Positions 33,404 to 63,612 of a stretch of DNA of 64,000 nt are shown piece after piece. Below the pieces are notes generated by a model. That model worked only from the letters and a program-made list of their open reading frames with translations. It made no database searches and was not told the origin of the DNA. The DNA lies in assembly GCA_001692895.1 (NCBI GenBank), contig KV748234.1, positions 620,001 through 684,000 on the forward strand, in the 5' to 3' direction. How positions within the stretch are numbered: position 1 is the first letter of the stretch; every line of letters begins with the position of its first letter. The position numbers and the translations under genes were made by a program. This DNA comes from Cenococcum geophilum 1.58 (lineage: Eukaryota > Ascomycota > Dothideomycetes > Gloniales > Gloniaceae).

Positions 33404-34442
33404 TTATAAGCTTGTCCTCCCCCCATCCCTCCCAAGCTTTCCCAGTTCTGTCAAGAAACGCTGATTGTACGCATCGGGACCTTCGTGCCCCGAAACTCCA
33501 ACACCGGAGAGGTTGAGTTTGACAGTATTATCAGGGTTGTCCTCCTCCTCGGCTCGCGTATTGCCTGGGCTGCGAATATTCTTCAGCTGAACCGGCAGAG
33601 AGAGAGGCGGAAGGGTAGATCCCTTTTCTTCGAGCTTATTCGGAAGTACTTGGCATCCAGGAGCTGATATTGCGCGGCGCACACGCTCTTTCCCGGCAGG
33701 GTCGCTCTGACAATGGTCGACTTTTGGCGGATAATGTTGCCTCCTCCGCCAATAGGGATGTTAAAAAAAGCCATTATTTCTGCAGCGATGCCCGCCTCAG
33801 CGGTGACGCTGTTCCCATCTCCCACGAAGCTCTTGCCGTCGACGAACTCATAACCCAGTCAACATCCAGATCTTCGGCGCTCCGAGTAGCATTGTTTTGG
33901 TGAGGTATTTGCCTGTCTTAAGTGAAAGCCATCGTTGGATTTTACTTCGCGTTGGCTCAATGCTTAGAACTTTCTCGTTAAGGAATTTCTCTGGACTTCC
34001 AAAGGATTAGCACTGATCGCCTGGTTTTAACGAGATTTCAATCAGAAGGTACTCAACTCCTTAAGAGCGATACGCCGGCATCGCTTAGCAGCAACTGCCC
34101 TCCCCATTGACCTTTCAAAGGCATTCCCAATATTGACGAGTTTGATAGCATTTGCTTCGATCTCGAGGCCCTACAGCTCCGTGGTGGTGATGCAGAAATC
34201 CACCAACTCTTGCACATACGCCCATTATCCAAGATCTAGATCGCTACGCATCGGAACACCGAGTACCTTGCACAGTGCACTCGAAGAGGGATCCAGAAAC
34301 CGTACCTTAACTGGCCGATAGAAGAGTGTGGATCTTTGTCAGGCCTAGTGTAGCTTCCAAACACTACATGTCCCAAATTGAGCTCTTCGGGGGAGTAGCC
34401 GCGGGCATAGAGATAGAAATTTGACTCTTCTTTCTTAGGCAT
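33404..34442 (-). pseudogene. Gasdermin-like gene remnant
   Basis: Minus-strand host gene remnant starting at the ATG of MPKKEESNFYLYARGYSPEE. After an N-terminal LYARGY/LNLG block and a RAVAAKRCRRIALKEL block come KIWMLTGLYEFVDGKSF near the middle and PGKSVCAAQYQLLDAKYFRI near the end. The order (short N-terminal strand block, 'F/WxxTGL' strand, then a 'VxAxQxxLL' strand) and an estimated length near 300 residues resemble fungal gasdermin-like (RCD-1/HET-Q1) pore-forming proteins. That is recognition from memory, not a search. It is broken in several places. A transposon lies just upstream of its start. The neighbouring CHAT-protease remnant supports the call, because fungal gasdermin genes are often paired with protease genes. 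Treated here as a fossil. Confidence 0.55.
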
Positions 34443-34516
34443 TTTTGGCACTAGTTTCGGCTGACTGTTTTGGTGAAGAGCTGGATTCGCTTTCAAGAGT
34501 GGAAGTCTCATTGCTG

Positions 34517-35699
34517 TTATCTCAGTAAGCGACTCAGACGGCAAACGAGACAGTAAATCCCGCTAGTACTTAACTAGTATAGCTTGTATATAACCCCTAC
34601 TAGCTTTATAAAACCCCTGCTAGTGTTATATAACCCCTATATTTAGGCTTACTATCTCGTTTGCCGTCTGAGGGCCTTTGGTGCGAAAATGTATAATGGT
34701 CGACTATTAACGGGAACGTGATACTACTAAAGAGTAATATATCTCTACCAGTTAACTAGTTAACCACTATAAAAGGTAATTGATTATATTTTAAGGGTCG
34801 CTTTATTTATCTATGTACTTATTTATGTATTTTAGCTAATATAAAGTTCTAAAATTACAGGTCGAAAATTTTTAACGTATCTTTATGGTCCAACTACGGC
34901 GCAAATTCTCTCTTAATGCTCCCCCCCTTGCCCCCCCTCCCCTCCCCTAATACCCAGTTATACACTGCCTAAATAAAACGTATACTAACCCTAACTACCC
35001 CACAGCTCCAGAGCCACGTTAGATGGTCCCAAACCCTAGAATGTTAAGCACCAGACGGATTCCATAGAGCTTCGATAGAGCTTCGAGCAGAGCTCCGAGT
35101 AGAGCTTTGATAGAGCTTTAAGCAGAGCTTCGATAAAGCTTTAAGCAGAGCTTTAATAGAGCTTCGAGCAGAGCCTTGTGTAGAGCCTTAAAGTAGAGCT
35201 TTGTGCAGAGCGTCGCGCAGAGCTTTGTATAGAGCTTTGTACAGGCGTTTGTGCAGACGTTCGTGCAGATGTTCGTGCAGACGTTTGTAGAGACGATTAT
35301 AAGACTTCCTAGTATATTAGTGCTGGGGACGCGTCAGTGTCTACCCAAATACTAGAAGCGCGTAACTCGTAAGAAAATGGTATTCCTATTGTAAAAAAGT
35401 AATTAATTGTGGAGGAGACTGGTCTAACTTAACTTATCAGCTTATTAGGTTAAAAAGGTATTATTAGGGAGTCAAATATATAGGAGGAAGTGTCTCTTAT
35501 ACAAAATTACAAAAATTAAAGTTAAGCACTATAGAGTTCCGCACCAAAGGCCCTCAGACGGCAGGGTAAACTTAAGGTTGGTAGATAGCTGATTGGTTAA
35601 AAGAAAGTGGCGTTTATTTAGGCGGAGACTAGTAATACTTTAGTATTAGTGAGTGCGCCTTCAGTTTGCCCTTGCCGTCTGAGTCGCTTACTGAGATAA
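34517..35699. mobile_element. 1.18-kb nested inverted-repeat DNA transposon with 8-bp target duplication
   Basis: The target duplication is cattgctg (34509-34516 and 35700-35707). The terminal repeats are ttatctcagtaagcga plus ctcagacggcaa at the left and the exact reverse complement at the right. Inside, ctcagacggcaaacgaga pairs with 34655-34672, ggcctttggtgcg at 34673 pairs with 35540-35552, and a third pair (35553 and 35683) bounds a 131-base unit. The interior has a C-rich run near 34920-34950 and a 12-bp minisatellite, but no transposase. An 8-bp duplication fits hAT and is compatible with Mutator-like elements, so this is a non-autonomous element of uncertain superfamily. It separates the gasdermin-like and CHAT remnants. 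Confidence 0.75.
35066..35290. repeat. Decayed 12-bp minisatellite (agagcttcgatag-type units)
   Basis: About eighteen diverged 12-base units of the form agcttcgagcag, drifting to gttcgtgcagac-type units at the right. This is the reverse complement of the cacgaagctctg unit at 62956-63612. It lies inside the nested transposon. Changes between units are mostly C/T and G/A, which suggests RIP or drift. Confidence 0.75.
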
Positions 35700-35706
35700 C
35701 ATTGCT

Positions 35707-37068
35707 GAGAGATGGTCGCGCTGTCCCGTCAGGCTGAACACGTGCTGAACATTTAGGCAGCAACTCAGCCCCGCTTTATGTCACCGAAAATACCACATTT
35801 CCTGGGCTGTGCGTTTTGCAGTGAAATACCCAGCTTCTATTAAAGGCGATATTCTCTGCACTCTCTGACTCGCTGAAGCATCAGCGCCTCAGAGGAACTT
35901 CTGTCATAGATCCACAGCGACTTGTTTCGTCATTTCGCTTCAGCGGCCGGTCGTGCATGACGGCATTGTCAGCACTCATCAAGGGAACCTCACGGATATT
36001 AACCTCAGGAGTCTGGTCCTGACCTTTATAAAAGCCATGAGGGACCGCACTATGCTCCCAGGCGATCTTCCCGAAGACTTTGTGCCCAGGTCAAAGGAAA
36101 AGCTTGCGCAGATAACCCAGAGCATTTCCAAGGAGATTTTGGAGCCAGTTAAAGATGTTCTTCGGAGCAAGGCCAATGTAGTCATCGTTCCGTCGCACCC
36201 ACTGCAGATGTTTCCTTGATCAGCACTGGTCCTAAATAGACAGCCACTGTTCCTGCAGAAAGCCGTATATCAGATTCCGAGCCTATCTGTGTTGTGCCAA
36301 ATAACTCAGCGCGGTACGAACGCCACTCTTTCCAAGGCCGCTATCCTGGCTAACTCCAAAGCGGTGTTAACTATTCCAATGGTTGGAATCGAAGCTGTCG
36401 TTGTGTTACAACTCTTTAACATGCTCCCTAGAGACTTTAAAGAACTAGATGTCCAGGAACTCCAATCCGTATTCGAGGATTCAGACATTGTGTACGTCGG
36501 GTCCCACGGAAGGCCAATATTCTCATCGCCCTAGCATTCTTACATCGAGGCCAAGGACAAGTTCCGCGTCCTGGATCTCGCCGCCTTAACAAAATGCGCC
36601 CCCTTAGTCTTCTTCGGCGCCTGCTAGAGTGGACTGGGAAGCGCGACTGTAGGAAACGACGTTCTGGGCTTTTCTCACGCGGTCTTGGAATCAGGTGCTC
36701 TGGCGTACATCGATGGGCTCTGGAAAGTGAATGATGTTGCCTCGATGCTCTAGACGATCTTCTTCTACCGCGGGTTGTCCAAGCGCGAAGAGAATGTCTC
36801 GGTCGCGGAGATATGGCGGAAGGCGCAGGTTGCGCTGTACGAGCTGGATACTCCCAGAGCCATAACGCTGCTAGAGCATCTGCTAAAAGCCCAGGGTGCG
36901 GCCCAGGATAAAGGGTACGATGCGGTGGGTTTCCAGGATTCACGCAGCGGCTTGTTAAAGGTGATCGAGCAGCTTAAACTTCCAGAGCACGAAATTGATT
37001 TCAAACACCCAGCTATATGGGTGCCATTCATCTTAACAGGATATGGAGGACTTGTTTTCAGCTAAAAG
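35707..37068 (+). pseudogene. CHAT-domain protease gene remnant
   Basis: One plus-strand frame from 35953 to the stop at about 37065, about 370 codons, is interrupted by four in-frame stops. The CHAT (caspase-HetF-associated-with-TPRs) domain is clear: an IVYVGSHG block supplies the catalytic histidine, a VFFGAC block supplies the catalytic cysteine, and then come DGLWKVND, a VSVAEIWRKAQVALYELD helix, and HPAIWVPFILTGYGG at the end. That is the usual order of the family. Upstream of 35953 further coding-like pieces occur in other frames back to the transposon edge at 35700, so the N-terminal part is lost or scrambled. CHAT proteases cut partner proteins; in fungi they occur next to gasdermin-like genes, as here. 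The stops at TAG/TGA codons fit mild RIP. Confidence 0.75.
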
Positions 37069-37449
37069 TTACGATCTGCTTCCCTTTTAGACTAATGGTT
37101 TGGGGATCTGGGAAAAGTTTGCGATCAGTATACGGGGGTCTTATCAGGAAGCGCATATATCAGAAGTAGTAACAACGAAGTGAAAACCAAAGTGAAATGG
37201 GAGAAAGAGCGAGCCCCGACGGCACAATTTAAGTTGCCGTGACATGACCGCTAAAACGTTTCCCAATACGCACAAAACGGCCCGATCACTTTTATTTGAC
37301 GGGTTAAGTTTTGTCCAACACCATCAAGAAATTATAACGTATGACCGCTCAGTAAAAACTCCGCCACAAATATAGTTGCTTCCTACGCTCCAGCAACGTA
37401 AACTACCCATAGCAGACATACTTTAAGAACCACTCTCTGAGTAGAGCTT
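37069..37449. other. Intergenic spacer after the CHAT remnant
   Basis: Normal base composition. I see no coding frame, repeat or RNA gene. It presumably holds the 3' flank of the CHAT remnant and the upstream region of the next gene remnant. Confidence 0.4.
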
Positions 37450-37950
37450 TCCCTCTTGCTCCTCTTCTACTTCCCATCGTGACATCGAGCACCGAGTACG
37501 GCCAAAGGCACAAGGCTATCAAGAACAGGCTTTTGTACGGGCGCAACTGGTTTAAAATACAGCGAAGATTCTCACTTGGAATCATCAGTCTTGTTCCTAC
37601 TAGTGGCACATAGAATATCAGCAATTTTGAGTAAGTGGTCTGGTGGATTCATCTAAACAAGTTACTAATAAAGTGAAGAATTGAAAGATTACCGGCGGAT
37701 GTGTTCAGCACATTTTTAGATGTTTTCGACGAGAAGCGTGGCGAGGTGGTTCAAGCTATCAGCGCATCAATTACCACAGCCATCGACAACATTCTACATA
37801 AGCGGGATCTAGGTAGAAGGTATGTTTTTAAGATTGTGGAGGAGGACACGTTGAAGAAAGAGCCGCTCGGCTCGGATAAGTTCATTCAATTCTGTGAACT
37901 GGGGGGAGCTGAGAATTAGTATAAGTGGCATTTTAAGCTCAAGGTAAGGT
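37450..37950 (+). pseudogene. Unassigned spliced host gene remnant
   Basis: Two plus-strand blocks look like one gene. The first (about 37475-37630) reads EYGQRHKAIKNRLLYGRNWF and then SLGIISLVP, with one in-frame stop. It ends at a good donor, gtaagt at 37631; a branch-like ttactaataa lies at 37661 and an acceptor near 37690. The second block reads LPADVFSTFLDVFDEKRGEV, continues through an isoleucine- and alanine-rich helix and a RDLGRRYVFKIVEEDTLKKE segment, and stops at 37919. I do not recognise the family. It could be the N-terminal domain of a STAND protein or an independent gene. The conserved-looking composition and the intron argue that it was once real. Confidence 0.45.
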
Positions 37951-38599
37951 AGATGGAGTTACGGATCTTAACTTCGATAAAATAAAATAACTAGTTTGCG
38001 CGTCGGTGAAAGTGACCGAAATATGGATGATACTCTCTGCCGTTTCTAAGACGCTTTCTTTAAGGTCTTTCTTTTTTTTTAATTTAATTTAATTTTTTTT
38101 CTAAAAGAAAAAGTGGGTATACTAGTGTGGATCTCCAAAACATACAGAACAGTCCCAACAAAAAAAAAAGGAAAAGGGAGAGTCCATACTATTTTGCCTG
38201 AGGGTGGCTGTCACGATATAACCCAAGCACGTGACTCTTGGTGCTCACGTGATTTCGTGAATCTCGCGAGGCCCCTTTTCCGGGCCCTCGCTCATGTCTT
38301 CCTTTCTTTCCTCTTTTCCTCATGCTACGTCTTGTATCTAGACTTGACCTTTTGCTTGAGACCAATCATCACCGACGTCTTCATCCATCCAGGCCTCCCT
38401 GCTGACTTGAGATTGCACTTAAATCCTTACAGAGGCTTAATCTTGATGCTTGAGCCCAGTGGGGCTGCGGGGCAGCCCACGCCTAGCAATGGCCTGGGGA
38501 AGTCTCCGCTCGGCGGGGCTCGCGGGGCCCGCGCCTTACCTGTCCTAATTGATCCCACAAATTTAGTCTGTTGCTCCACAAAACTGGTCCACACATCTA
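37951..38599. other. Upstream region of the hydrolase-NLR remnant
   Basis: Contains a T-run (38060-38100), two cacgtga-type palindromes near 38228-38255, pyrimidine-rich promoter-like sequence (38290-38330) and a GC-rich block (38455-38540). One long open frame on the plus strand crosses all of this, but its composition changes abruptly and it includes promoter-like sequence, so I do not accept it as a protein. The 5' part of the hydrolase gene may begin near the ATG at 38445. Confidence 0.35.
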
Positions 38600-39580
38600 T
38601 TGCCTTGCGAACTGATCTGTTACGAATAGTGCCTTATCAAGGCGGTTCAGATGAATCAGGATGATCACCCAACAATAGCGTCTCTCCACAAGGCCACGTA
38701 CGGCATTCTTTTCTTCGCAACGCCACACAAAGACATGATAGTAGAGGACATCAGGATGATGCTTGCATGCCAAGATAATCATCCGCGGCATGTGCTACTC
38801 CAGCGAATCAACCGCGAGTCCGATCTGACTTCTCAGCTGGTCGACTTCAAGAACCTGATCCGGGATCGCAGGATTGTGGGTTTCTACGAGACTGAGCAAA
38901 CGAGACGACTGGAATTTGTAAGTAATCTCAGCGATATGGAGCACGACGATGGGAAATTATCTGACCTTGAAATGCTAGAGTGCGGAGAGTCAATCCTGGA
39001 GACGAACAGGCCATTTTATCACCGCTGTGGATACTAACGCCGCTCTGCTACACCTTCCTGACCATATTGAAGATAAAATCCCCCCTCCACACCGACCACT
39101 CCCAAATCGTCAAGTTTGGTAACCGGAACGCTTCAGGATACAGGAGCGCCCTAGAGAAGCTAAAGAAGTTCGAGCGGGATGCACCGCCAGTAGTGTCTGC
39201 TCATTTTTGTACGTAGTTTTCGCCATAGATCCACCAGCAACTTCGATTAGGAGCGATCCCAGAGAGTTTATGATACAAATACAAGTCAATCCTTCTCAAG
39301 CGATGGCAATCATGACTCTCGGGTCGGCCACAGTTATAGCCGGATCACCAGCACCTTCAAACCTCCTTAGTTATATGTCAAGCGGTATCACGCGGACAGC
39401 AAAGCTAACAGAGCTCTATTCCCAGCACAACCGTCCCTACAAACAACTACCCCATCCTCCACAGTACCATTTCGGCGTGATGGGGACTATCCATAGCGAC
39501 ATCCTCGCCAAGATCCACAGGAGATGTTCTCAGCCGGCATCTCGGGCCGCACTCGTTAGCCTTGGGGGTGTTGGGTAGGC
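38600..39580 (+). pseudogene. NLR remnant: SesB-type hydrolase and start of NB-ARC
   Basis: The plus strand encodes the second half of the alpha/beta-hydrolase (SesB-like) domain found at the N-terminus of fungal STAND/NLR proteins. Blocks are ASLHKATYGILFFATPHKDM, DNHPRHVLLQRI, LVDFKNLIRDRRIVGFYETE, then, in another frame, DHSQIVKFGNRNASGY and KKFERDAPPVV. After a linker (39230-39450) comes the start of an NB-ARC domain: KIHRRCSQPASRAALVSLGG at 39495-39570. The reading stops just after the P-loop GxGG, where the lysine of the Walker A motif is expected. The hydrolase is missing its first half and the nucleotide-binding domain is cut off at its start, with at least two frame changes. No repeat domain remains. 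These proteins act in heterokaryon incompatibility and immune-like cell death, in keeping with the neighbours. Confidence 0.7.
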
Positions 39581-40058
39581 TATCAACCTGACGGTTGTTT
39601 CTCGTAGCCGCGAGCTCCGCGGATCTTACATCTTCGTAAGCCCTTCTTCTCCGATGCCTGAATAGCTTCAGACCTGTCTGATTCGTGGCAAGCAGATGAT
39701 AACTATCAGTGGTGTGCTTGGAGCTGGTCTCCATGTGAGGAGTGGCTCAATTCTTCGAATTACTGGACCGGTTGCAGTCTTGGTCTCCTTCGCTGTCCTC
39801 AGGCTACTCGCATTGATAGTAACGCAGTGTATAATTAGCGGAAAAGCCCTATTGGAATTGGACAACCATGCAGGCAACCGCGTGGAAAGTTCCGTAGTTG
39901 CAGGCAACAACATCTACGGCAACATCATTCTCTCGGATATATAAAGCCAGTCATTACCACAGGTAGATAAGAAATCAATTAAGCTGAACGGGATCACTTT
40001 GCCCTACAAGCTCAATGAGTGCTACACTGCTACACACAATCCCCATGAGAATATGTTC
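39581..40058 (+). other. Spacer with a short hydrophobic open frame
   Basis: An 82-codon open frame at 39696-39944 contains one clear hydrophobic segment (RITGPVAVLVSFAVLRLLAL) followed by a polar tail. It is in the same frame as the P-loop fragment upstream but unlike any NB-ARC sequence, so it may be a leftover exon of a membrane protein or chance. No splice context is clear. The rest of the interval shows no gene. Confidence 0.3.
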
Positions 40059-41856
40059 TCACTCTCGCTTCTCTTGTTCTTCCTGGTTCATCCGATTAAC
40101 AACCTGTGAAACTGCTGTCGCCGTCCTCAACGTCTCGTCATCAAGCGCTCCCGTGTGCACAAAGAGGCGCTGCATCTTATCCGGATGCCACCGGACCTTC
40201 TCGGCTTTGAGAATAGCGAGAAGCTCGGCTGACTTCTTGCCCGGAATAACAGGACTTAAGAGTCCGTAGTGGAAGAAGGCCTCGATGTCTGCTGCTTCCG
40301 CGCTCTGGCAGCTGCTAAACGTCCCAGCGTCGGTAGGCCAGGGAATAGAGTTGCGCGGGTTTCTTGTCATACGGGACTGTGCTGTGGCGTTACTGAGTTC
40401 CGCCCAAGCACGGGTGTACCTGTCCCAACGGGCCTTGTTTCGAAGAACTTTTGCTGCCGCCTCCGCACGTTGACGGTTCGCTGCTCCCTCACGCCTTGCT
40501 CTTGCTTCCCTCTGTTGCCGCTCTTGCCTTTCCCTTTCTTCTCGTTCCTGCCTTTCCTTTCGTGCTCGTTCCTCCCCTTCCTTTCTCGCTTTTTCCTCCC
40601 TTTCGAGTCGTGTTTGTTCCTCTCTCTCACGCTTCAGCTTGGCCTCCTCCTCTTTCATCCAGTTCCCCTCTTCATGCCAGCTCGATGTGTATGTATCGGT
40701 CGCTAGTCGAGTCCCGCTTGCGTATGGCGGATCTTCACGCCCAAGGTTAAGGTTTTTAAAGAGGTCCTCGAAGGGCCTCTGGTATGTTCTGTTCGGCGAA
40801 CTAGGCGTAGATGGCTGTTCCCAAGAGAATTGGCTGGCAAAATCCTCAGAGTTGGTTCCAAACGTCGGACTTCCGTTTTCGGCAGCAAGGGCTCTCTGGA
40901 GCTCCATTCGCAACTGGACAAGAGTGGCTGGATCGAGCATCCTCTTAGCGAAAGCATCAGCCCCAGGCAGCCAGGTCACTGCAAGAGCTTGAAGGACAAG
41001 CATCCCAGGTTGTATCGGAAATAATAATCCTCCACCATACCGGCCTGCCGCATCTAACCAGTATCGGCCTGCGGACGGCAATATACCCATCGACAGGATC
41101 TGAAGGCCATCTAACGGATGGATTAACCGTCCGTTGATGGAGACGCCGGTGTCCGACGGACAAGAAGCATCCGCTTGGAGCTCACCACCGAGATCCATGC
41201 CTGGGGGAAGGATGCCAAGGCAGGGTCCACCCTTGATGCCCCATATACCGCAAACCTTGTCATACCTGGCGTTCGGATCATATATCAGCTAGATATGCTG
41301 GGGACAACGCGATGCAAGACGCTTTGACTCACCAGTACTGGCCAGGGGAAGGAAAATAGCCCTTAAGCTTGAGACGCAGGAGCTGCACCTTGGCAAGCGG
41401 TGTGCCGTTGATGGTGACCTGGTCGGAGACATTGGGGAGGGGAGAGGAAGTCCAGAATGATTCCTGACATCCTGCTGTCGGCGAAGTTCCAGACCAGGCC
41501 GAGGTATATTGGGGTCCAGAATTGTAAGATGCCCATGCGGCCCTCTGAGCTGCCGCTTGAGCTTGTTGTTTCTGGAGACCCTCCGCCAACCCCTTTTTGA
41601 ACTCCTCCTTAAACACAGACCATAATGTTGACGTGAGTGAAGGCTTCTTGGCTCCATTGCCGAAGCTGAAGGTGGCTGAGGACGGGTGTGCCTGCGGCGG
41701 CTGCCCGGTGAAAGCCTGTCCATGGCCCGAGGACGCAACGTAGGCCGGGCGCATCCAAGAAGTCTCGCCCGTTCTAATGTTCTCGTAGTAGAGCTTCCCA
41801 TCGGGGTCGCTCTTGATAGTCCAGCCTAGAGGGGCATAATTGAAAGAGTCCGCCAT
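40059..41856 (-). CDS. WW-domain, coiled-coil protein with a WHPDK-type C-terminal domain
   Basis: Two exons (41856-41333 and 41265-40059) join in phase 2 to give 576 residues with no internal stop. A WW domain (about residues 10-37, from LGWTIKSDPDGKLYYENIRT to W34 and P37) should bind proline-rich ligands. Residues 147-199 and 213-266 are two copies of one module: V(T/S)ING, a leucine-rich stretch, then PG/AG(Q/R)YW and a glycine-rich end. Residues about 378-458 form a highly charged R/E/Q helix, probably a coiled coil. Residues about 520-570 carry KAEKVRWHPDKM, resembling the J-like end of NFKBIL1-type and related fungal proteins. No signal peptide or membrane segment is seen. Composition is normal and free of RIP, unlike most of the window. 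Function unknown; a scaffold role is inference. Confidence 0.85.
41266..41332 (-). other. 67-bp intron of the WW-domain gene
   Basis: On the minus strand it begins gtgagt, has a branch-like agctgatat and ends cag. Length and signals are typical of filamentous fungi. Splicing restores the tryptophan of the GQYW motif and joins the two halves of the first repeated module. Without splicing the frame ends at once. Confidence 0.85.
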
Positions 41857-42689
41857 ATCGATATGGCAAGTGGGTGTGGGAGAAGAGGGTAGCGAAAAAC
41901 TGGAAGAGAGCCCGAAGTCCCCTGGGTTAGGCTCTAGTGTTACCTAATGCATCACAGAAACACCCCGCAAGGCGTTGCCTCAGCCTTGCTTTAGTTATTC
42001 GGAAATCAGCCAATTAGAGCAGGGCTAGCTATCTCAGCATCAAGTCATTCCTTTCGCCCATCTTCACAAACCAAGCCTCCTGCTACAGGCTTATATGGCG
42101 CCAGAAGGCGATCGCCATGCCCGTAAGTCGGAGTTCGTCTCTGCACCCTATATGCGCAAACCCACTTTAGCCAACTTGGACACCAAATGGATATTGGGTG
42201 AATGGATGGATGGGTTTCCTTACGCGTGATTGGTGGTTAACTAATTTGGCAAGCGGACCTCGGAAACCCCGTCACAAACAGCCCCAGGAAGGGTTCGATG
42301 TGCCGTTCTGTTGTTTATCTGCGTGAAAAATAATGGAATTCTAAACCTGGAAAATGGACGCCCGAAATGAAAAGCGCCTATTAGTGTGCTGGCGCACAGG
42401 GCGGGTCTTTGAGAATCGGCTGACTGAATCCCCTTCTAAAACGATATAAAGGCTCTTTCTAGGCTTCGTCTCCAACCGCCTGGTAGGGCTGTGTAGTAGG
42501 AGCTCACACAATATTAAATAATTTGGTGCATTTGTGGAATCGCCCGGCCATACAAGGGGGATACATGTGCGGTTTGGCATGGTCAGTGCATCCGAATATT
42601 CCAGAATTGCTAGCAAAACCTATATAAGCTTAGAATGCATTGATGAATCAGGTATATAACGAATTTTTCTTATCTAAAGTCGCAATTAC
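41857..42689. other. Upstream region of the WW-domain gene
   Basis: Unique-looking sequence of normal composition. The first 100-200 bases upstream of 41856 should hold the promoter and 5' leader of the minus-strand gene. The minus-strand open frame at 42341-42616 has no recognisable features. No RNA gene is seen. Confidence 0.45.
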
Positions 42690-62955: not shown

Positions 62956-63612
62956 GATGCAGAGGCTCTGCACGAGGCTCTCACACAAAGCTCTGCACGA
63001 AGCTCTGCACGAAGCTCTACACGAAGCTCTGCACGAAGCTCTACACGAAGCTCTGCACGAAGCTCTACACGAAGCTCTATACAAAGCTCTGCGCGAAGCT
63101 CTACACGAAGCTTTGCACGAGGCTCTACACGAAGCTCTGCACGAATTCGTGCACGAAGCTCTATACAAAGCTCTGCGCGAAAGCTCTACACGAAGCTTTG
63201 CACGAGGCTCTACACGAGGCCTCTACCACAAAGCTCTGCGTACAGAGGCTCTGCACGAGGCTCTACACGAAGCTCTGTTACGAAGCTCTGCACGAAGCTC
63301 TATATAAAGCTCTGCACGAAAGCTCTGCACGAAGCTCTACACGAAGCTCTACACGAAGGCTTTTGCACGAGGCTCTACACGAGGCTCTACACAAAGCTCC
63401 GCATATGGAGGCTCTGCACGAGGGCTCTGCACGAAGCTCTACACGAAGCTCTACACAAGGCCTCTGCACGAAAGCTCTACACGAAGCTCTGCACAAAGCT
63501 CTATATAAAGCTCTACACGAAGCTCTACATTATGGAGGCTCTGCACGAGGCTCTGCGCGAAGCTCTGCGTACGGAGGCTCTACACGAAGCTCTACACAAA
63601 GCCTTTGTGTGT
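62956..63612. repeat. 12-bp minisatellite (cacgaagctctg)
   Basis: About fifty tandem 12-base units, mostly cacgaagctctg or cacgaagctcta, with occasional gaggctctg variants and 1-2 base slips. Because the unit length is a multiple of three and has no stop in most frames, long frames stay open on both strands (HEAL, SSTR and CRAS-type peptides). I regard these as artefacts. The same unit occurs reversed and decayed at 35066-35290. Confidence 0.9.

What the first reader, a model, noticed from the sequence alone, without database searches (positions are those of the whole stretch)
33404..39580. Fossil fungal cell-death locus: gasdermin-like, CHAT protease and SesB-type NLR remnants side by side
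Seen: a minus-strand remnant with gasdermin-like blocks, a plus-strand CHAT domain with its His and Cys blocks recognisable, an unassigned spliced remnant, and a hydrolase/NB-ARC remnant, all in 6 kb of normal composition. Known: fungal gasdermin-like genes (RCD-1/HET-Q1 family) are frequently paired with protease genes, including CHAT proteases, and SesB-type NLRs work in allorecognition. Inference: this was a three-part or larger cell-death cluster, now dead, invaded by transposons. An NLR fragment directly next to a gasdermin/CHAT pair would be a notable combination.
Basis: partly seen in the sequence, partly recalled or inferred. Interest (0 to 1): 0.75.

Follow-up and report, generated by a model that had tools for sequence, protein, structure and literature searches.

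The report
Dead fungal CHAT–gasdermin-like gene pair
A fungal genome carries the decayed remains of what looks like a two-gene cell-death module, a caspase-like protease and its probable pore-forming partner, next to a broken immune-receptor gene; such pairs are already known, and this genome keeps unbroken-looking ones elsewhere.

Summary
The sequence features are real. The plus-strand CHAT remnant is certain (PF12770, 85.6 bits, E 2.3e-22, four stops). The minus-strand remnant is a true gene fossil: three co-linear blocks match a spliced 257-codon gene on contig C25 (0 of 1000 shuffles each). The one other clear member of this CHAT subclass lies on the same contig, 33 kb from that gene, in the same head-to-head order, across RIP-like, repeat-bearing DNA. 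Profile comparison joins the remnant's family to a second branch with members 2-7 kb from other CHAT genes. This fits published fungal CHAT-gasdermin clusters.

The third remnant is the 5' half of a SesB-like hydrolase/NB-ARC receptor, cut at the P-loop. No listed NB-ARC match lies on the contigs of five other CHAT pairs, but that list is incomplete, and one partner fragment sits beside an NB-ARC gene. A three-part cluster is not established. The remnants show no RIP signature; an inverted-repeat element separates the pair. A dead new member of a known kind.

The parts
33404..34442 (-). gasdermin-like remnant; significant blocks at 34239-34442 (N-terminal), 33848-34006 and 33586-33858, in three frames; probable C-terminal tail to 33404 (inference)
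   Evidence: co-linear matches to the C25 gene L010; a probable intron lies just before the PE(E/K)FLN block in both (read)
34516..35700 (.). inserted element with terminal inverted repeats and a 6-bp flanking duplication ATTGCT, containing an inner inverted repeat and a minisatellite; sits between the two genes
   Evidence: inverted repeats I1-I3 and minisatellite; flank letters; RIP-like composition
35950..37059 (+). CHAT protease remnant, C-terminal part only; four in-frame stops; His and Cys blocks recognisable; no credible trace of the N-terminal ~950 residues of its C25 relative
   Evidence: PF12770 at 36118-37041; 34% identity to residues 957-1327 of the C25 open frame
37413..37919 (+). 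unassigned remnant, perhaps two exons (inference)
   Evidence: weak relatives of 37677-37916 elsewhere in the genome; no Pfam match
38630..39213 (+). SesB-like alpha/beta hydrolase remnant
   Evidence: own-genome relatives of 38630-39034; relative L039 carries Abhydrolase_6 over the cut-off; 39035-39213 by reading only
39357..39578 (+). linker and P-loop start of an NB-ARC domain; the rest of the domain is missing
   Evidence: 14 further matches of 39312-39575 in the genome, E 5e-7 to 0.66; in L044-L046 the same motif is followed by an intron-like gap and KSQLAIEY... sequence; no Pfam match of the piece itself
39666..39941 (+). amino-acid permease fragment directly after the broken receptor gene
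   Evidence: PF00324, E 2.3e-4, below the cut-off

Best explanation
The locus held a head-to-head two-gene cell-death module: a CHAT (caspase-like) protease and a small gasdermin-like protein. By the published model, the protease cuts the partner, which then makes membrane pores and kills the cell, for example after fusion with an incompatible strain. Shown here: CHAT homology, the partner family, their repeated linkage, and their decay. Inferred: that the partner is a gasdermin, the cleavage, the pore and the trigger. Both genes show stops and frame changes but no RIP signature. An element inserted between them, and the N-terminal part of the protease gene is missing. The SesB/NB-ARC receptor fragment downstream is most likely an independent dead gene in the same small island.
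For: CHAT over the Pfam cut-off. A genome search with the C25 CHAT finds itself, the window (200 bits) and one distant 32-bit match. The closest relative of the partner remnant is also on C25, 33.3 kb away and also divergent; chance of such placement 9e-5 if sites are uniform. The partner's profile joins a second branch (hhalign 95.3%, E 2.3e-8; 100 column shuffles reach at most 0.7%). In a whole-genome search with the C65 gene, five other loci cover most of it, and three of them lie within 7 kb of a CHAT match, against 0.13% expected per locus. The C25 gene has 257 codons to its first stop; RCD-1-1 has 257 and HET-Q1 278 residues (passages of PMC12881547, PMC10989679). About 19% of fungal gasdermin genes lie within 10 kb of CHAT genes (passage of PMC10197012).
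Against: No profile or sequence match to any known gasdermin. None of 20 S8 protease matches lies near a locus of the family (the nearest is about 134 kb away, on C65), although S8 is the commoner partner in print. Two of the nine fuller loci (C2, C28) have no CHAT match on their contig. The single-piece fold of the window was meaningless (mean pLDDT 37). The C45 first-branch copy has no CHAT of the matching subclass on its contig among the matches found.
Confidence: 0.75

Rival explanations
1. The CHAT partner is not a gasdermin but another, unnamed fungal protein family that is the substrate or guard of CHAT proteases. The locus is then a protease/partner pair of unknown killing mechanism.
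For: No gasdermin profile or PDB match; no S8 linkage.
Against: Size, small-protein/CHAT pairing and proteolytic logic match the published CHAT-gasdermin clusters (passages of PMC12881547, PMC10197012).
Confidence: 0.18
2. A true three-gene module: a separate SesB/NB-ARC receptor sensed the trigger and acted on the CHAT protease, which activated the gasdermin-like protein.
For: The receptor fragment starts 1.6 kb after the CHAT remnant on the same strand. By a lower-bound count of 37 NB-ARC matches such nearness has chance 0.1% for a random site; gene islands and missed receptor genes make the true chance higher. On C66 a C-terminal partner fragment lies next to an open NB-ARC frame with TPR-like repeats beyond it.
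Against: No NB-ARC match on C25, C45, C65, C1 or C46 among the 37 listed; no SesB or P-loop match in C25:475000-531500; an unassigned remnant lies between. The C66 neighbour shows no match to the window's SesB pieces in the stretches fetched and its partner fragment is only the gene's end.
Confidence: 0.1
3. The minus-strand blocks are chance frames and only the CHAT and receptor fragments are real.
For: The remnant spans several frames, and one of four blocks is not significant alone.
Against: Three blocks in order against one gene, 0 of 1000 shuffles each; in a search of 177 Mb with the exon-3 frame of L010 the only non-self matches at E 1 were here.
Confidence: 0.02

Closest known systems
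CHAT-protease/fungal gasdermin two-gene clusters (Q2-L class, Podospora and others)
   Same: small partner gene beside a CHAT gene; the C25 relative is a large protein with a C-terminal CHAT domain; pairing repeated in the genome
   Different: both genes dead here; partner not proven to be a gasdermin; protease lacks its N-terminal part; the C25 pair, whose CHAT is open, is 33 kb apart
HET-Q1/HET-Q2 of Podospora anserina
   Same: protease plus small partner; partner of similar length (257 codons to the first stop in C25, against 278 residues)
   Different: HET-Q2 is an S8 serine protease, not CHAT; no S8 match lies near this family here
hetB of Aspergillus fumigatus (CHAT protein of 1,327 residues; passage of PMC11138114)
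   Same: the C25 relative has an open frame of 1,333 codons ending in a CHAT domain
SesB-type fungal NLRs (hydrolase followed by NB-ARC)
   Same: hydrolase followed by linker and P-loop start
   Different: cut at the P-loop; NB-ARC body and repeats absent

Membership tests
CHAT protease | PF12770 match over the curated cut-off | tested here: met
   85.6 bits against 24
CHAT protease | catalytic His and Cys | tested here: met
   both blocks align with the intact domains, though a stop follows the Cys
CHAT protease | open reading frame | tested here: not met
   1 TGA and 3 TAG inside the domain: a pseudogene
fungal gasdermin (RCD-1/HET-Q1) | sequence or profile similarity to known gasdermins | tested here: inconclusive
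   no Pfam or PDB match; profiles had only 2-4 sequences
fungal gasdermin (RCD-1/HET-Q1) | gasdermin pore-forming fold | not testable with these tools
fungal gasdermin (RCD-1/HET-Q1) | genomic linkage to an S8 or CHAT protease gene | tested here: met
   of 9 fuller loci, the window included, 7 lie within 33.3 kb and 5 within 7 kb of a CHAT match; none near S8
SesB/NB-ARC NLR | SesB-like hydrolase N-terminal domain | tested here: met
   best own-genome match 35%, E 1.3e-5; the name SesB is recalled, Pfam shows Abhydrolase_6 in relative L039
SesB/NB-ARC NLR | NB-ARC domain | tested here: inconclusive
   only the P-loop start is present; no Pfam match of the piece
NLR-CHAT-gasdermin three-gene cluster | same trio at another locus | tested here: inconclusive
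   no NB-ARC match on C25, C45, C65, C1 or C46 among 37 listed, but the list misses known receptor genes; a partner fragment lies beside an NB-ARC gene on C66, where no CHAT match is listed

The most novel reading that the evidence does not exclude
The locus is the fossil of a split, three-gene inflammasome-like pathway: a free-standing SesB/NB-ARC receptor, a separate CHAT protease and a gasdermin-like pore former in one 6-kb cluster. That would be the mammalian order of parts as separate genes, whereas in the published fungal cases that I saw in passages (PMC10197012, PMC9815663) the receptor itself carries the protease.
Probability: 0.1. Interest if true: 0.7.

Novelty: new member of a known kind. 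Interest (0 to 1): 0.33.

Why it matters
It shows birth and death of CHAT/partner pairs within one genome. In the C59 and C25 pairs both genes are each other's nearest relatives found; the C65 and C46 pairs match each other best among those compared. The pairs decay, or lie far apart across RIP-like DNA. The open partner frames at C25, C65 and C1 give concrete candidates for testing which small protein a fungal CHAT protease controls, a question left open for hetB in A. fumigatus (passage of PMC11138114).

Tried and rejected
Pfam on ten stop-to-stop pieces of the region and on further pieces: apart from a weak CHAT piece and an amino-acid permease fragment, nothing useful. PDB searches of gasdermin-like pieces and profiles gave no match or chance matches only; one search's single row was a cholera toxin chain at E 0.75, a chance match that was not pursued. 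The C25 CHAT had no PDB match at E 0.01. PADLOC on the second branch gave one weak match (spbK, E 0.0075, one of four members), taken as chance. AlphaFold2 of one 90-residue window piece: mean pLDDT 37, not used. The C45 first-branch copy was at first taken as a third matched pair. Its CHAT belongs to the other subclass and a second-branch gene lies nearer (6.6 kb against 24.6 kb), so it is not counted as a matched pair. Rows dropped before counting: of the 39 matches, only the six loci covering most of the gene (C65 itself, C46, C28, C2, C45, C1) were counted as fuller loci; the rest are three pieces beside C65 itself and about 27 partial loci. Bias: C65, C1 and C45 were first met by scanning CHAT neighbourhoods, then recovered by whole-genome search; C46 was found by that search alone. 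The flanks (about 4-10 kb a side) of 9 of the 16 CHAT matches outside the window were fetched and scanned; partners were found at 3 (C65, C1, C45). C25's partner lies beyond its first flank.
Full report
1. Setting. The window is C59:620001-684000 of an unnamed 177.2-Mb genome in 162 contigs. In 2-kb blocks, 1-32 kb and 44-64 kb have TpA/ApT 1.52-2.04 and mostly a low (CpA+TpG)/(ApC+GpT), a strong RIP signature; the blocks from 32 to 44 kb have GC 0.41-0.55. Within that island the gasdermin-like, CHAT and receptor remnants have GC 0.50-0.51, TpA/ApT 0.68-0.76 and a second index of 1.26-1.33, so they bear no RIP signature; stops and frame changes arose otherwise. I do not know the species and make no claim about it.

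2. CHAT. A whole-genome family search gives 17 CHAT matches, all over the cut-off. The window's match is at 36118-37041, 85.6 bits, with 1 TGA and 3 TAG. Similarity to the C25 protein extends over 35950-37059 and covers residues 957-1327 of its 1,333-codon open frame; no credible trace of the first ~950 residues remains in the window. Among nine CHAT domains compared (of 17), window and C25 score 190-199 bits with each other and at most 50 with the rest. A genome search with the C25 CHAT finds only C25, the window, and a distant 32-bit match on C15.

3. Minus-strand gene. The N-terminal piece finds itself and a 29%-identical stretch on C25 (E 0.025). The exon-3 frame of that C25 gene finds, at E 1, only itself and two stretches of the window, in order (E 0.007 and 0.048). 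The C25 gene can be read as three exons: introns of 55 and 46 bases with GT..AG ends, 257 codons to a TAG. The alignment with the window remnant is 30% identical. A probable intron lies just before the PE(E/K)FLN block in both (read). Shuffle controls: 0 of 1000 for three blocks, 122 of 1000 for the fourth. A further, decayed copy lies at C45:266692 (E 0.87 for its first stretch; then). Its first and third blocks pass the shuffle test (0 of 1000 each) and its last does not (136 of 1000).

4. Linkage. On C25 the partner gene starts 33,288 bases from the CHAT open frame, and the two are divergent as in the window. The DNA between is AT-rich: TpA/ApT is 1.21-2.04 in 31 measured 1-kb steps, 28 of them at 1.49 or more. 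Of its two outer pieces 66-72%, but of the two inner pieces only 13-29%, matches sequences elsewhere among those I hold. The chance that a random site falls this near the one other CHAT of the subclass, in this orientation, is 9e-5. This assumes uniform placement and ignores gene islands.

5. Second branch. A three-sequence profile over 6,708 open frames from 44 sources gave weak new matches beside CHAT genes on C1, C65 and C45 (E 0.006, 0.78 and 1.2). Genome searches with the C65 and C1 genes define a second branch: open frames at C65 (248 aa), C1 (315 aa) and C2 (309 aa), and broken copies at C45, C46 and C28. Profile comparison of the two branches: 95.3% probability, E 2.3e-8, over 109 columns. 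Of 100 column-shuffled controls none exceeds 0.7%; a reversed control gives 0.6% and a CHAT alignment 0.1%. Gaps to the nearest CHAT: window 1.7 kb, C46 2.2, C1 3.5, C65 3.6, C45 6.6 and 24.6, C25 33.3. C2 and C28 have no CHAT match on their contigs. The C46 pair matches the C65 pair best among those compared (CHAT 57%, partner 71%), so pairs seem to be copied and to decay together. Orientation is not constant: C65 is tandem and C1 convergent.

6. Gasdermin or not. Published passages say that about 80% of fungal gasdermin genes are clustered with protease genes, about 19% near CHAT genes; that HET-Q1 has 278 and RCD-1 244-257 residues; and that a TPR-bearing CHAT protease of P. anserina activates its gasdermin (passages of PMC10197012, PMC10989679, PMC12881547; the primary paper PMC8851545 is not held). 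The anatomy here fits. Direct tests gave no match: Pfam and PDB. None of 20 S8 protease matches lies near these loci. I put 'gasdermin' at about 0.8, given that CHAT pairing is secure.

7. Receptor fragment. 38630-39034 has eight other matches in the genome, best E 1.3e-5, four below 0.01. In L039 and L036 the hydrolase region is followed by NB-ARC-like sequence. The tail 39312-39575 has 14 further matches, and in L044-L046 its last motif runs, after an intron-like gap, into KSQLAIEY... sequence that I read as NB-ARC. In the window the gene ends at the P-loop and an amino-acid permease fragment follows. Among 37 NB-ARC matches at E 0.01 none is on C25, C45, C65, C1 or C46. The list is a lower bound and misses the genes of L044-L046, so this absence is weak. 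A result the other way: on C66 a fragment of a C65-type partner gene (79% over 34 residues, 88% over 16, tail end only) lies about 0.25 kb from a TPR stretch on the opposite strand, which follows an open NB-ARC frame. The window's SesB and P-loop pieces found nothing in the two stretches fetched there, and no CHAT match is on C66. So a receptor beside a CHAT/partner pair is seen once, as a fossil, and a receptor beside a partner fragment once more.

8. Inserted element. Between the genes lies an element at 34516-35700 with terminal inverted repeats (30 bases identical) flanked by ATTGCT on both sides. If that is a target duplication, the flanks were contiguous when it inserted: about 70 bases upstream of the partner's start, and about 250 bases before the first recognisable CHAT-gene sequence. 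Either the protease gene had already lost its N-terminal part, or it was always short. I cannot tell which.

9. Literature. Searches for gasdermin with CHAT, NLR, SesB, pseudogene or Cenococcum showed listings of 20, 20, 20, 0 and 1 papers out of 161, 32, 591, 0 and 1. None of those listed describes, by its title or opening lines, a SesB receptor beside a gasdermin/CHAT pair. I read passages, not whole texts, of seven papers: PMC10197012, PMC12881547, PMC10989679, PMC11138114, PMC12258605, PMC9815663 and PMC11760362.

Noticed in passing
C65 gene (L017:4084-4827, -) and its copies listed: About 27 partial copies of the C65 gasdermin-like gene, some 24 of them wholly within residues 1-142 and all but one with stops (mostly TAG/TAA), are scattered over many contigs. 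The 5' half of the gene seems to have been carried and multiplied by a repeat that was then RIP-mutated (inference).
   Followed up: partly
C66:228600-232900 (L054, L053): Open NB-ARC frame (PF00931 match; its upstream frame reads like a HET-domain protein, recalled) with TPR-like repeats, and about 0.25 kb beyond them, on the other strand, the tail end of a C65-type partner gene.
   Followed up: partly
L010:2364-2582: After the TAG that ends the 257-codon C25 gene, the same frame stays open for 71 more codons with a coiled-coil-like stretch; the window and C45 copies also seem to have C-terminal extensions. The C25 protein may be a shortened form.
   Followed up: no
C15:60702-61004 (L034) and C15:82708-83514 (L005): The best relative of the window's SesB piece lies 21.7 kb from the CHAT gene that is next closest to the C25/C59 subclass. 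Coincidence or a second SesB-CHAT association is open.
   Followed up: partly
window 37677-37916: Piece with 14 weak relatives (18-32% identity) across the genome, 13 with stops; family unknown.
   Followed up: partly
window 35066-35286 and 62958-63600: A minisatellite of AGAGCTTCG-like units occurs inside the inserted element, near the window's right end, and in L029.
   Followed up: no
window 40059-41943 (-): Open frames with a WW domain (PF00397, E 6.7e-7) and a long charged region, normal composition; looks like a living gene at the edge of the island.
   Followed up: no
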